Source: an uncultured Halomicronema sp. (GTDB taxonomy: Bacteria; Cyanobacteriota; Cyanobacteriia; Phormidesmidales; Phormidesmidaceae). Taken from it: a stretch of 46,472 nucleotides of DNA. The position numbers and the translations under genes were made by a program. The notes beneath the pieces are model-generated. The model was not told where the DNA came from. It saw only the letters and a list, made by a program, of their open reading frames with translations, and ran no database searches. Location: NCBI GenBank assembly GCA_937899725.1, contig CALCCA010000077.1, positions 1-46,472 of the forward strand. Reading direction: 5' to 3'. Position 1 is the first letter of the stretch, and every line of letters starts with the position of its first letter. This document shows, one piece after another, positions 22,680 through 25,568 of this stretch.

Positions 22680-24176
22680 TTAGGTCTCTTCTGGAGCGGC
22701 GGCTGGAGCGGCGACCGCAGTCACCGCCGGAGCACTTTGACCAGAGCCGTCGTGCGCGTGATTTTGTTTGGGCTCATAAAACACCGTCTCAATCGGTTGA
22801 TCATAGACAGACGTTTTGGGTAAAGGCTGAGGTAGCTCATACAAGCGCTGCGAGCCATTACGGCCATACCCAAACATGGTTTTCGCATCAGCCCGCGCCG
22901 ATTGGTAAACCGTGTCTTTTTGAAGCTGATAAGTCGTTTGATACAGCGTTTTCTCAACCCCGTTGATCGCGGTTAGACTTGGCTGCTCAATGCCCTGAGA
23001 GGGCTGATAGTCATAGTCTGCAAAGGGTTGCTCCCGCTTGAGCATCGGCTGCGGTTCCGTCTGCGGCAGACCATACTGCATGGCGACGGCGGGTTGAGGC
23101 TGCAGCGCTCTGACTGGCTGATAGGCCAAGAGCGGATTGTCGCTAGCGGACTCTCGATTCAGTTGCCAGCTGGCGAACAGGCTACTGATGTTAAAGCCCA
23201 TCGCCCGCTGAAAATGCCACAACCCACCCTGTAAGAAGAAAAAGGCCAGATAGAAATGACTGTTGGCCAGCCAAGTGCGATTGGTGTAGCCCTCCGCCAT
23301 AGTGGGCGACAGCTCAAAGTAGCGGGGTAAAAACGCTGATTTGAGCTCTAGAGTCGGGCCATAGAAGGCCTCAGGATAGGCCAACGTGTTAAAGCCGCAG
23401 TAGTAAGAGGCGGCAAATCCGGCGATCGCAATGCCAAACAGCGAATAAGACAGGATGCCATCACCGGAAAATATAAAGACCCGCTCCACCCACTTAAACG
23501 GCGGCACGAGAATGTGCCAAGCGCCTCCGGCAATCAGCAGACCCGTCACGTAAATGTGACCGCCCACTAGATCTTCTAAATTATTGACGTCAAACAAGTG
23601 AGTGCGATAGTCCCACAGGGTGGCCGGATCAAGGGTTGGTGCTGTGACCAGCCGCACCTCATCGACATTGGCATCATAGAGGCCACCAAAGAACTGCGCC
23701 TTGACCACTAGCAACAGCGCTCCGAGGCCCAAGAACACGAGGTGGTGCCCTAAGATAAAGCCTAATTTAGGCGCGTCTTGCCATTGAAAATCAAAGGCGG
23801 CGGCCCGGCCCGGCGCGATCGCTAAATTCGCCGGCAGCCGCGATCGATGAAAGTAGGCTCCCGCCGTCAGCACGCCAGCGGCCACAATGTGAATCATGCC
23901 AATGGCAAACCAGGTATAGGTGCTAACGATGGCTCCCCCAGCGTCGAGCCCCCACCCCTGCGTTGCCAGATGCGGTAACAGAATCAGACCTTGAGTATAG
24001 AGCGGCTCATCGGGAGCATAGACGGCCAACTCAAATAAAGTAAAGGCCCCAGCCCACAGCATAATCAAGGCTGCTTGGGCGACGTGGGCCACGATAAACG
24101 TATTTGACAGATTGATAAATCGGGCATTGCCCGCCCACCAGGAATATTGCTCCTGGGGTTGTTGAGAAGCGTACAT
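22680..24176 (-). CDS. isiX: IsiX-like chlorophyll-binding antenna (CP43/IsiA family) with long tail
   Basis: A six-helix chlorophyll a antenna of the IsiA/CP43/Pcb superfamily. The N-terminus YSWWAGNARFINLS and the helix with HVAQAALIMLWAGAFTLFEL are diagnostic. Further blocks are GMIHIVAAGVLTAGAYFHR, KLGFILGHHLVFLGLGALLL, LEDLVGGHIYVTGLLIAGGA, and SHFYLAFFFLQGGLWHFQRA. The large lumenal loop of PsbC is absent. The antenna part ends near residue 340. Residues 341-498 are a Gln/Pro/Tyr-rich, non-membrane extension with YQSARADAKTMFGYGRNGSQ and an alanine/proline tail. I chose the ATG at 24176 over a TTG six codons upstream. It follows apcD4 and apcB3 homologues, matching the low-light cassette order apcD4-apcB3-isiX. 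Confidence 0.82.
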   Translation of the reverse strand: MYASQQPQEQYSWWAGNARFINLSNTFIVAHVAQAALIMLWAGAFTLFELAVYAPDEPLYTQGLILLPHLATQGWGLDAGGAIVSTYTWFAIGMIHIVAAGVLTAGAYFHRSRLPANLAIAPGRAAAFDFQWQDAPKLGFILGHHLVFLGLGALLLVVKAQFFGGLYDANVDEVRLVTAPTLDPATLWDYRTHLFDVNNLEDLVGGHIYVTGLLIAGGAWHILVPPFKWVERVFIFSGDGILSYSLFGIAIAGFAASYYCGFNTLAYPEAFYGPTLELKSAFLPRYFELSPTMAEGYTNRTWLANSHFYLAFFFLQGGLWHFQRAMGFNISSLFASWQLNRESASDNPLLAYQPVRALQPQPAVAMQYGLPQTEPQPMLKREQPFADYDYQPSQGIEQPSLTAINGVEKTLYQTTYQLQKDTVYQSARADAKTMFGYGRNGSQRLYELPQPLPKTSVYDQPIETVFYEPKQNHAHDGSGQSAPAVTAVAAPAAAPEET

Positions 24177-24430
24177 GGCAATAGGTGACAGCAACAGTGG
24201 TGTTTAACGTCGGCCTACCGACGAGGATAGGCCGCTGGATTTGGCACTAGCGTTTAAGGGGCGGCGCTGAGGAGATGGCCGAGAAACCAGATGCCGTAAC
24301 GGCAAGGGCCGGGTTAGCGAGAACCTTGATGGCATGACCACAAGACATCAACTCAACCTACCCCTGCGGGCATCGTGGCTCATGGTAATCTCCCGTAGTC
24401 ACGTCTCTCCGACCTAGCAATGCTTTCGGT

Positions 24431-24457
24431 CAGGGGTTGAGCACTGCCAACCCCCTG
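24431..24457 (-). repeat. Intercistronic hairpin between apcB3 and isiX
   Basis: CAGGGGTTG (24431-24439) pairs with CAACCCCCTG (24448-24457) with one bulge. It lies 31 bases after the apcB3 stop in a 311-base gap. Without a T tract it may be a processing or stability element, or a partial terminator lowering isiX relative to apcB3. Confidence 0.5.
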
Positions 24458-24487
24458 CGGTCAGAGACGCGAGGTGGGGCAACTCCC

Positions 24488-24973
24488 TTAGCTGAGACCA
24501 TTCACGATATGGTCGAGATAGACATCCATTTCCTGACCGGCTTCAGCGCCCACGCGTTGGGTCACCACTTCCTTCATTGCCTGCACCGCTTGCACCGTCC
24601 GCTCTACTGGAACGCCCAGTGATGAGTAGGTATCTTTCAAGCCGTTCAGCACCCGCTCATCCAAAATGGAAGCGTCAGCGGCCAGCATGGCATAGGTGGC
24701 ATAGCGCAAGAAGTAAGTCAGATCTCGCAGACAGGCGGCATAGCGCCGGGTCGGATACATGTTGCCACCGGGGAGCGTAATATCTCCGTACAGCAGGCTT
24801 TTAGCGACGGTGTCGCTGATAATGCTGGCAGCACTAGAGCCGATTTGCTCGGCGGCCTTAACTCGTAAAGTGCCTGTTTGAAAATATTGCTTCAGCTTAT
24901 CGAGTTCGCCACCCTCTAAATAGGTGCCTTTCTCATCAGCCGGATTGATGACGGAGGTAATCGTGTCTTGCAT
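24488..24973 (-). CDS. apcB3: Allophycocyanin beta-like subunit (ApcB3-like)
   Basis: 161 residues, the standard beta-subunit length. It starts MQDTITSVINPADEKGTYLE like ApcB, has the GGN site (Asn71, methylated in the family), and carries the phycocyanobilin cysteine at 81 in RRYAACLRDLTYFLRYATYA. The C-terminus has DASILDERVLNGLK and LGVPVERTVQAVQAMKEV. It lacks a canonical core-operon context (no apcA, apcC or apcE nearby). It probably pairs with the divergent alpha-like subunit encoded just upstream to form a specialised allophycocyanin. Confidence 0.88.
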   Translation of the reverse strand: MQDTITSVINPADEKGTYLEGGELDKLKQYFQTGTLRVKAAEQIGSSAASIISDTVAKSLLYGDITLPGGNMYPTRRYAACLRDLTYFLRYATYAMLAADASILDERVLNGLKDTYSSLGVPVERTVQAVQAMKEVVTQRVGAEAGQEMDVYLDHIVNGLS

Positions 24974-25034
24974 GGTGTTTTAAGCGTTGACGTATTAGTA
25001 CAGCAAAAGTAATGGGTTTGAGACTCAAGCTCGA

Positions 25035-25075
25035 ATGGGGTGTCGGCTTGGCGAGTTTTGCTCGCCGCCACCCAT
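25035..25075 (-). repeat. Hairpin between apcD4 and apcB3
   Basis: GGCGAG-TTTTG-CTCGCC (25050-25066) is nested inside a longer ATGGG/CCCAT pairing (25035-25039 with 25071-25075). It is about 20 bases past the apcD4 stop. It could stabilise or partly terminate the transcript and so set alpha/beta stoichiometry. Confidence 0.5.
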
Positions 25076-25094
25076 CTTCGGCGTTGCCGAGATG

Positions 25095-25568
25095 CTAAAA
25101 GGCGCGGACCAGTTGATCAAAGTAAGGCCCAGCCAGTGCCGCCTCTTCTGAACTGAGCAGACCCATCGCAACTTCTTTTAAGCAGCGCATCGCTAGCTTC
25201 AAGTTAGGCAGGGGCACCCGCAGCGAGACGTACATGTCACGCATGCCGTCGAGGCCAATATCTTCGAGAGGCTTAGAGTTGCCCGCCAATACGCAATAGC
25301 TCACTAAGCGGATGTACCACCCTTGATCGCGTTGACAAAGAGACGTTTTTTGAGGATCACCGCTGTTACTCGGAGTGTTAGGACATTGAGCCCAAAACCG
25401 CTTGCTGCCTTCGTCAACAATCTTTTGTTGATTGGCGGCTAATTTCTGGGCGGCGCTAATGCGGGTCGTGCCCCCATTGAAAAAATCCTGCAGTTGAGTG
25501 AGCTCAGCCCCGCTTAAAAACCGCTCAGCGCGATCAGACTGGGCGATCACTTTAGCAACAATACTCAT
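25095..25568 (-). CDS. apcD4: Divergent allophycocyanin alpha-type subunit (ApcD4-like)
   Basis: 157 residues. It has the alpha/ApcD layout, with MSIVAKVIAQSDRAERFLSG, KIVDEGSKRFW, and the chromophore cysteine 78 in SLCQRDQGWYIRLVSYCVLA. It differs from ApcA and ApcD in the loop before the cysteine (CPNTPSNSGDPQK, residues 62-74, normally a PGGNAY-type segment) and in the unusual YCVLAGNS. It retains the ApcD-like WY pair. Divergent ApcD-type subunits are associated with red-shifted absorption. An AGAGG ribosome site precedes the ATG, right after a leader frame. First structural gene of the cassette. Confidence 0.83.
   Translation of the reverse strand: MSIVAKVIAQSDRAERFLSGAELTQLQDFFNGGTTRISAAQKLAANQQKIVDEGSKRFWAQCPNTPSNSGDPQKTSLCQRDQGWYIRLVSYCVLAGNSKPLEDIGLDGMRDMYVSLRVPLPNLKLAMRCLKEVAMGLLSSEEAALAGPYFDQLVRAF

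What the first reader, a model, noticed from the sequence alone, without database searches (positions are those of the whole stretch)
22680..25568. LoLiP-type apcD4-apcB3-isiX cassette
Three minus-strand genes encode a divergent ApcD-type alpha subunit, an ApcB-type beta subunit and an IsiA/CP43-type antenna. They lie in the order reported for the low-light photoacclimation cassette of certain Synechococcus. No other core phycobilisome or photosystem gene is nearby. The grouping suggests a red-shifted allophycocyanin coupled to a chlorophyll antenna, used in deep or shaded layers.
Basis: partly seen in the sequence, partly recalled or inferred. Interest (0 to 1): 0.8.

Follow-up and report, generated by a model that had tools for sequence, protein, structure and literature searches.

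The report
Low-light far-red antenna gene cassette
A cyanobacterium carries a known three-gene kit for harvesting far-red light in deep shade, and relatives that kept only the unusual tail of its chlorophyll protein suggest that this tail has a job of its own in the antenna.

Summary
The three minus-strand genes are a LoLiP-type apcD4-apcB3-isiX cassette. The best solved relatives of the two phycobiliproteins are the two chains of the ApcD4-ApcB3 nanotube 8DDY. In trees the alpha subunit falls in the ApcD4 clade (100/100) and the antenna in an IsiX clade (100/99), apart from FaRLiP subunits, PsbC and IsiA-like proteins. The cassette is known in print, sporadic, and not confined to Synechococcus: the IsiX tail is in 19 of 63 genomes searched of the window's order and 10 of 291 sampled from another. 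The same genome also has a FaRLiP cluster with rfpBAC. No LcyA-like photoreceptor lies among the window's large ORFs.

Two things were not met in the papers searched. (1) Three related Pleurocapsales genomes keep apcD4-apcB3 but carry a 'mini-IsiX': about 29 N-terminal residues joined to the C-terminal tail, the chlorophyll-binding membrane domain gone. The tail keeps its conserved tyrosines and matches no Pfam, NCBIfam or PDB family. This fits the published guess that the tail organises the nanotube. (2) In a few genomes the cassette lies beside rfpBAC or an rfp-like triad.

The window itself is a new member of a known kind.

The parts
25095..25568 (-). apcD4: allophycocyanin alpha-type subunit, 157 aa, with Ser11, Phe58, Cys62, Lys74, bilin Cys78, Trp84, Cys92
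   Evidence: best PDB hit 8ddy_A E 2.2e-81; ApcD4 clade 100/100; residues
24488..24973 (-). apcB3: allophycocyanin beta-type subunit, 161 aa, with Thr4, Pro11, Pro74, Thr75, bilin Cys81
   Evidence: best PDB hit 8ddy_B E 3.1e-77, ordinary ApcB close behind at E 5e-70; residues; neighbourhood. No tree
22680..24176 (-). isiX: CP43/IsiA-type antenna with C-terminal tail, 498 aa from the likelier ATG (504 aa from the TTG at 24194)
   Evidence: Pfam PSII E 2.1e-56; IsiX clade 100/99; start by alignment with relatives
23187..24146 (-). IsiX membrane (chlorophyll-binding) domain, about residues 17-336 of the 504-aa form; helix VI reads QGG where IsiA reads QGH
   Evidence: PDB match residues 12-339; NCBIfam 19-336; helix VI motif
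22683..23168 (-). IsiX C-terminal tail, about residues 343-504, Q/P/A-rich, conserved tyrosines 358, 374, 396, 418, 422, 430, 452, 473
   Evidence: conservation over 38 distinct tails; no Pfam match; no transmembrane segment; pLDDT under 50 in a poor model
24974..25094 (-). 121-nt gap between apcD4 and apcB3
   Evidence: coordinates; median in 27 related loci 108 nt
24195..24487 (-). 293-nt gap between apcB3 and the TTG start of isiX, able to fold strongly as RNA
   Evidence: median in 27 related loci 90 nt, range 39-307; folding z -2.40; one weak partial match elsewhere in the genome

Best explanation
The cassette encodes an additional far-red antenna of the LoLiP kind. ApcD4 and ApcB3 should each bind one phycocyanobilin; the alpha bilin, flattened by a shortened loop and Phe58, should absorb near 709 nm (inferred from conserved residues). 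The pair should assemble as a helical nanotube, as its solved relative does (inferred). IsiX binds chlorophyll a in its membrane domain and probably sits beside photosystem I (proposed in print for its relative). Its hydrophilic, tyrosine-bearing C-terminal tail most likely binds the nanotube and ties it to the membrane, perhaps limiting its length (proposed in print; the mini-IsiX genomes add support). Energy would pass from ApcD4 to chlorophylls of IsiX and red chlorophylls of photosystem I (inferred). In this genome, where no LcyA-like gene was found on the contig but rfpBAC is present, the cassette is probably induced in shaded or far-red-rich light, with RfpB one candidate regulator (weakest step, inference).
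For: Gene content and order; structure hits; trees; spectral and helix-forming residues; apcB3 follows apcD4 in 28 of 28 related loci and an isiX-type gene follows on the same strand in the 27 whose contig reaches that far; mini-IsiX keeps N-terminus and tail, loses the membrane domain; conserved tail aromatics; FaRLiP and rfp genes in the genome; co-occurrence of RfpB and the IsiX tail in the order, 10 of 19 against 1 of 44 genomes.
Against: No expression or spectral data for this organism. Reports on far-red control conflict: raised in H. hongdechloris (PMC6416890 passages), not in Chlorogloeopsis fritschii (PMC6424891 and PMC4658448 passages). That the tail touches the nanotube is not shown anywhere in my calls; the mini-IsiX gene is less constrained (dN/dS 0.46-0.48) than apcD4 and apcB3 in the same pairs (0.09-0.19). 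A regular 22-residue tyrosine spacing is not significant with objectively chosen sites. The co-occurrence is not corrected for relatedness.
Confidence: 0.85

Rival explanations
1. The cassette is simply part of the FaRLiP response here: its allophycocyanin serves as an extra terminal emitter of far-red phycobilisomes feeding chlorophyll-f photosystems, as proposed for H. hongdechloris, and not a separate nanotube on photosystem I.
For: Same genome has a FaRLiP cluster; RfpB in 10 of 19 tail-bearing genomes of the order; rfpBAC lies upstream of the cassette in L019; PMC12279586 argues for this role in H. hongdechloris.
Against: 9 of 19 tail-bearing genomes of the order show no RfpB at the level used; the helix-forming residues Ser11, Thr4 and Pro11 are present and Trp75 is not; the cassette is on another contig.
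Confidence: 0.25
2. The IsiX tail is not a nanotube binder but an attachment to photosystem I or another membrane partner; mini-IsiX is then a small peripheral protein linked to ApcD4-ApcB3 only by neighbourhood.
For: No binding data; mini-IsiX also keeps the N-terminal ~29 residues; its dN/dS is fairly high.
Against: When the chlorophyll domain was lost the apcD4-apcB3-tail arrangement stayed; tail with conserved aromatics in every tailed sequence examined.
Confidence: 0.3
3. Mini-IsiX is a decaying remnant of isiX after deletion, without function.
For: dN/dS 0.46-0.48 between L016 and the others with p about 0.03; L017 and L018 differ by 5 non-synonymous and 0 synonymous changes; probably a single deletion event, one genus.
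Against: Open in three genomes, no stop or frameshift, conserved tail positions kept; tail dN/dS against full-length relatives 0.21-0.30, like 0.28 between two full-length tails.
Confidence: 0.2
4. The antenna is an ordinary iron-stress IsiA that happens to lie beside allophycocyanin genes.
For: Same superfamily; closest solved structures are IsiA.
Against: Separate clade at 100/99; long C-terminal tail; helix VI QGG/QGS in 24 of 24 sequences with that region against QGH in IsiA; linkage to apcD4-apcB3 in 27 of 27 loci that reach it. Iron response not testable.
Confidence: 0.03

Closest known systems
LoLiP cluster apcD4-apcB3-isiX with lcyA of low-light Thermostichus/Synechococcus (PMC4477158, PMC10038336, PMC12214013; passages and named sections)
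   Same: Gene trio, order, ApcD4 and ApcB3 best hits to its solved structure 8DDY, IsiX with C-terminal tail
   Different: No LcyA-like gene among the window's four ORFs of 500 aa or more; genome also has FaRLiP; tail about 160 residues against 127 reported
psbA-apcD4-apcB2-isiA2 operon of Halomicronema hongdechloris (PMC6416890, PMC12279586)
   Same: apcD4, apcB and tailed IsiA2 together; organism also has FaRLiP
   Different: No psbA beside the window cassette; beta Thr75 instead of the Trp75 needed for 728 nm
apcD4-apcB3 with oppositely directed isiX of Chlorogloeopsis fritschii (PMC6424891 passages)
   Same: Same three gene families
   Different: In the window all three genes are on one strand
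FaRLiP allophycocyanins ApcD2/D3/D5-ApcB2
   Same: Short loop and far-red type alpha subunits
   Different: Other clade; 44-49% identity for the three alphas of the same genome
IsiA, iron-stress antenna (6K33, 6KIF, 6NWA)
   Same: Membrane domain, residues 12-339
   Different: No matching tail; separate clade; QGH in helix VI

Membership tests
LoLiP-type apcD4-apcB3-isiX cassette | alpha subunit in the ApcD4 clade | tested here: met
   100/100 in a tree of 53 rows; best hit 8ddy_A
LoLiP-type apcD4-apcB3-isiX cassette | beta subunit of ApcB3 type | tested here: met
   best hit 8ddy_B with ordinary ApcB not far behind; Thr4, Pro11, Pro74; no tree built
LoLiP-type apcD4-apcB3-isiX cassette | IsiX: CP43/IsiA-type antenna with C-terminal extension, apart from IsiA | tested here: met
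   clade 100/99; tail residues about 343-504
LoLiP-type apcD4-apcB3-isiX cassette | order apcD4-apcB3-isiX on one strand | tested here: met
   same in 27 of 27 related loci that reach isiX
complete four-gene LoLiP cluster of Thermostichus | adjacent LcyA cyanobacteriochrome kinase | tested here: not met
   none among the window's four ORFs of 500 aa or more; elsewhere in the genome not searched
LoLiP response | expression in low light and absorption near 709 nm | not testable with these tools
   needs culture and spectra
FaRLiP allophycocyanin | alpha subunit in an ApcD2/D3/D5 clade inside the FaRLiP cluster | tested here: not met
   other side of a 100/100 branch; cassette on C77, FaRLiP on C87
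iron-stress IsiA | clusters with IsiA | tested here: not met
   IsiX clade 100/99 outside the IsiA-like rows
iron-stress IsiA | induction by iron starvation | not testable with these tools
   no expression data
H. hongdechloris 728-nm type | beta Trp75 | tested here: not met
   Thr75 in the window; 0 of 26 anchored beta subunits have Trp

The most novel reading that the evidence does not exclude
The C-terminal tail of IsiX is a separate, disordered scaffold of the ApcD4-ApcB3 nanotube, unlike known phycobilisome linkers, that works even without the chlorophyll domain: three Pleurocapsales genomes use it as a stand-alone 173-177-aa linker. It may act as a molecular ruler whose length evolution has changed, among other ways, by duplicating a 59-residue module. 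Probability lowered from 0.40 to 0.35 on rechecking, because a regular 22-residue tyrosine spacing that I first took as support is not significant with objectively chosen sites.
Probability: 0.35. Interest if true: 0.68.

Novelty: new member of a known kind. Interest (0 to 1): 0.47.

Why it matters
How the far-red nanotube antenna is held to the membrane and what limits its length are unsettled in PMC10038336 (proposal only), and the regulation of LoLiP is called an open question in PMC12214013. The natural deletion of the chlorophyll domain separates two possible jobs of IsiX and gives a small protein without transmembrane segments with which the linker or ruler idea can be tested directly. 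Natural tail lengths from about 127 to 241 residues supply a ready series. The nearness of rfp-type regulators in a few genomes suggests a link to far-red sensing worth testing.

Tried and rejected
FaRLiP membership and iron-stress IsiA were tested by trees and rejected. In one search the LoLiP label was set by identity to the window (65% or more), and the genome's ApcA was lost to a filter, so ordinary alphas are represented by one ApcD. In one search my script labelled three rows (L068, L069, L116) IsiA-like; they lie inside the IsiX clade and come from loci where IsiX was found. No ApcB tree was built.

Tyrosine periodicity: one search gave p 0.04 for eight and 0.0018 for ten positions at lags 21-22, but the ten were hand-picked: Trp343 and positions 394 and 429, which pass the same thresholds, had been left out. 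With all sites at or above each threshold the p values are 0.09-0.12 (0.95 level, 9 sites), 0.12 (0.74 level, 13 sites) and 0.63 (0.68 level, 16 sites); the Fourier-type test was also not significant (0.65, 0.19). I drop the periodicity claim. The straight-chain ruler arithmetic does not fit simply either: about 160 residues fully extended would be several times longer than 10-13 protomers at 72.6 angstrom per 7 (values of PMC10038336).

A dispersed repeat in the apcB3-isiX gap: only one weak partial match in the genome (105 bases, 70%, E 1.4e-4), so not. Promoter and terminator scans gave about chance numbers. A shared upstream motif was looked for by eye only, in the window and 19 loci; nothing obvious. 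AlphaFold2 of full IsiX gave a poor model (mean pLDDT 46.7), tail under 50: weak evidence for disorder; I ran no second model and no fold search. Self-BLAST for repeats printed nothing; the 59-residue duplication was shown by a direct comparison.
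Full report
What is there. The window is the whole of contig C77 of a 7.0-Mb cyanobacterial genome in 216 contigs. On its minus strand lie three genes: a 157-aa allophycocyanin alpha-type subunit (25568-25095), a 161-aa beta subunit (24973-24488) and a 504-aa CP43/IsiA-type antenna (24194-22680). The ATG at 24176 matches the start of most relatives and is the likelier start of the last gene, giving 498 aa. IsiX residue numbers below use the 504-aa form.

Identity. The alpha protein's best solved relative is chain A of 8DDY (E 2.2e-81, aligned without gaps); the next, FaRLiP ApcD5, is far weaker (E 1.5e-49). The beta protein's best is chain B of 8DDY (E 3.1e-77), with ordinary ApcB close behind (E 5e-70). 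8DDY is the ApcD4-ApcB3 complex FRL-AP (PMC11614940, passages). IsiX residues 12-339 match IsiA of 6K33 (E 4e-129); the rest matched nothing in the alignments shown.

Trees. Of 53 alpha rows the 31 of LoLiP type, window and its identical own-genome copy included, form one side of a branch with support 100/100; 21 FaRLiP alphas, three of them from this genome, and its ApcD are outside. Of 43 CP43-family rows, 28 form an IsiX clade with support 100/99 beside IsiA-like rows, PsbC and FaRLiP PsbC2 further out; three of the 28 carry a wrong label from my script. The beta subunit rests on best hit, residues and neighbourhood.

Residues. Papers tie far-red absorption or helix formation to particular residues (PMC10038336 section 8, first of two parts; PMC11614940 passages; PMC12279586 sections). 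The window has alpha Ser11, Phe58, Cys62, Lys74, Cys78, Trp84, Cys92 and beta Thr4, Pro11, Pro74, Cys81. Alpha Ser11, Cys62, Cys78, Trp84 and Cys92 are in 28 of 28 anchored sequences, Phe58 and Lys74 in 27; beta Pro11, Pro74 and Cys81 in 26 of 26, Thr4 in 25; 1 of 29 alphas and 3 of 29 betas could not be anchored and were dropped. Beta Trp75, needed for the 728-nm band of H. hongdechloris (PMC12279586), is in 0 of 26; the window has Thr75, so I expect about 709 nm (inference). IsiX helix VI reads QGG (19) or QGS (5) in the 24 sequences with that region out of 28 examined; IsiA reads QGH in the alignments. PMC6416890 (passages) had noted missing histidines there in tailed IsiA2-type proteins.

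How common. The one scan of genome contigs returned 58 loci: 29 at 75-89% identity to the window ApcD4 (L009-L036, L065) and 29 at 50-55% (L037-L064, L066), of which 26 show an array of several apcD-type genes with an apcB-type gene, as in FaRLiP clusters. In 28 of 28 loci L009-L036 apcB3 follows apcD4, and in the 27 that reach far enough an isiX-type gene follows on the same strand. Of these 27, three are mini-IsiX, L029 is broken by a frameshift and L025 lacks its N-terminus. A phylum-wide sample gave 5 of 386 genomes, the window's included, with ApcD4 at E 1e-60 or better; one of them (G005, 69%) has its IsiX-like gene in the opposite direction, as described for Chlorogloeopsis (PMC6424891). 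The IsiX tail is in 19 of 63 genomes of the window's order and 10 of 291 sampled from the order of G070. Wider occurrence in a few other strains was already in print (PMC4477158, PMC4390838, passages).

Mini-IsiX. In L016 (Pleurocapsales LEGE 10410), L017 (Myxosarcina MAG) and L018 (Pleurocapsa sp. CCALA 161) the gene after apcD4-apcB3 codes for 177, 173 and 173 aa: the first ~29 residues of IsiX run straight into the tail, so about residues 35 to 335 with all membrane helices are missing (alignment). The highest 19-residue hydropathy left is 0.78. The three proteins are identical to those found in G532, G070 and G544, which are 3 of the 10 tail-bearing genomes; all three are in one genus, which also has a genome with full-length IsiX (G563). 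In one search none of the three shows a second protein with the tail. One deletion event is likely. dN/dS between L016 and the other two is 0.46-0.48 (p about 0.03), against 0.09-0.19 for apcD4 and apcB3 in the same pairs; L017 and L018 differ by 5 non-synonymous and 0 synonymous changes, which gives no sign of constraint; against three full-length relatives the tail gives 0.21-0.30, and two full-length tails give 0.28. Upstream in L018 lie cpcB, cpcA, two rod-linker-type genes and cpcD, with the same ORF pattern in L016 and L017; pcyA lies between them and apcD4 in L016 and L017, and was not seen in L018.

The tail. Among 38 distinct tail-bearing sequences, close relatives included, eight positions past residue 350 are aromatic in 36 to 38: 358, 374, 396, 418, 422, 430, 452, 473; Trp343 is in 38 of 38. 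I first saw a 21-22-residue spacing, but with objectively chosen sites it is not significant (p 0.09-0.63). Tail length, where my pattern could cut it, runs from 127 to 241 residues. In L114 (G643) 59 residues are duplicated in tandem. The tail has no transmembrane segment by hydropathy, although PMC4477158 suggested one more helix for IsiX; no Pfam or NCBIfam match (one chance-level hit, E 0.26) and no credible PDB match; pLDDT under 50 in a poor model.

Mechanism. Gisriel 2023 proposed that the tail threads the nanotube as a ruler and that the tube feeds photosystem I (passages). The mini-IsiX genomes fit this: the chlorophyll part was dropped, and the part predicted to meet the allophycocyanin stayed beside apcD4-apcB3. 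That the tail binds the tube at all is inference, and decay of the gene is a live rival.

Regulation. The genome has a FaRLiP cluster on C87: psbA, psbB, psbC, psbD, apcE-type, three apcD-type, an apcB-type, psaA, psaB, and an rfpB-rfpA-rfpC triad; names rest on domains, order and similarity. In Nodosilinea sp. LEGE 07088 (L019) rfpB, rfpA and rfpC (54, 59, 66% identity to the window genome's) lie upstream of apcD4, rfpC about 1.5 kb away; in L016-L018 a histidine kinase, a receiver protein and an RfpB-like regulator (38-39%) lie downstream, and L036 shows the first two before its contig ends. The kinases of L016 and L036 are PAS-GAF-PAS-HisKA-HATPase without a PHY domain. In the window's order RfpB at 51% identity or more over at least 440 residues, or in two pieces at one place (G641), was found in 11 of 63 genomes; 10 are among the 19 with the tail, 1 among the 44 without (p 6.7e-6). 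Counting borderline G644 in or G642 out leaves p at 1.5e-4 or lower. Relatedness is not corrected for. Reports on far-red control conflict: raised in H. hongdechloris (PMC6416890), not in C. fritschii (PMC6424891, PMC4658448). [quoted passage not shown]

In print or not. Searches (listings, then the passages and sections named above) showed no IsiX without its membrane domain and no rfp genes beside the cassette. Soulier 2022 and the 2021 thesis were not seen, so this is no proof of novelty.

Verdict. The finding is confirmed and the interpretation supported; the window is a new member of a known kind. What is added lies in the relatives.

Noticed in passing
L016:9407-9940, L017:7621-8142, L018:9179-9700: Mini-IsiX: apcD4-apcB3 followed by a 173-177-aa protein made of the IsiX N-terminus and tail without the chlorophyll domain.
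   Followed up: yes
L016:10616-14982, L017:8639-13008, L018:10197-14847, L036:2874-5331: Histidine kinase, receiver protein and (in the first three) an RfpB-like regulator just downstream of the cassette: a possible LoLiP-dedicated rfp-like system.
   Followed up: partly
L019:1339-6541: rfpB-rfpA-rfpC upstream of a LoLiP cassette in Nodosilinea sp. LEGE 07088.
   Followed up: partly
L114 (G643), IsiX tail: 59-residue tandem duplication in the IsiX tail: a natural length variant.
   Followed up: partly
L029:9176-10659: isiX of Synechococcus sp. SynAce01 is split by a frameshift in a complete genome; broken gene or sequencing error.
   Followed up: no
window 24195-24487: Long apcB3-isiX gap that folds strongly (z -2.40, 4 of 200 shuffles as stable); median in 27 relatives is 90 nt.
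   Followed up: partly
G000:C95:33543-36825: Three further CP43/IsiA-like genes side by side in the same genome.
   Followed up: no
L052: Record titled Candidatus Gracilibacteria carries a FaRLiP-like apcD/apcB array; probably a mis-binned cyanobacterial contig.
   Followed up: no
G070:C76:114625-115140: A mini-IsiX genome also has a 178-aa frame matching IsiX residues 67-238 at 58%, possibly a broken IsiA-like gene.
   Followed up: no
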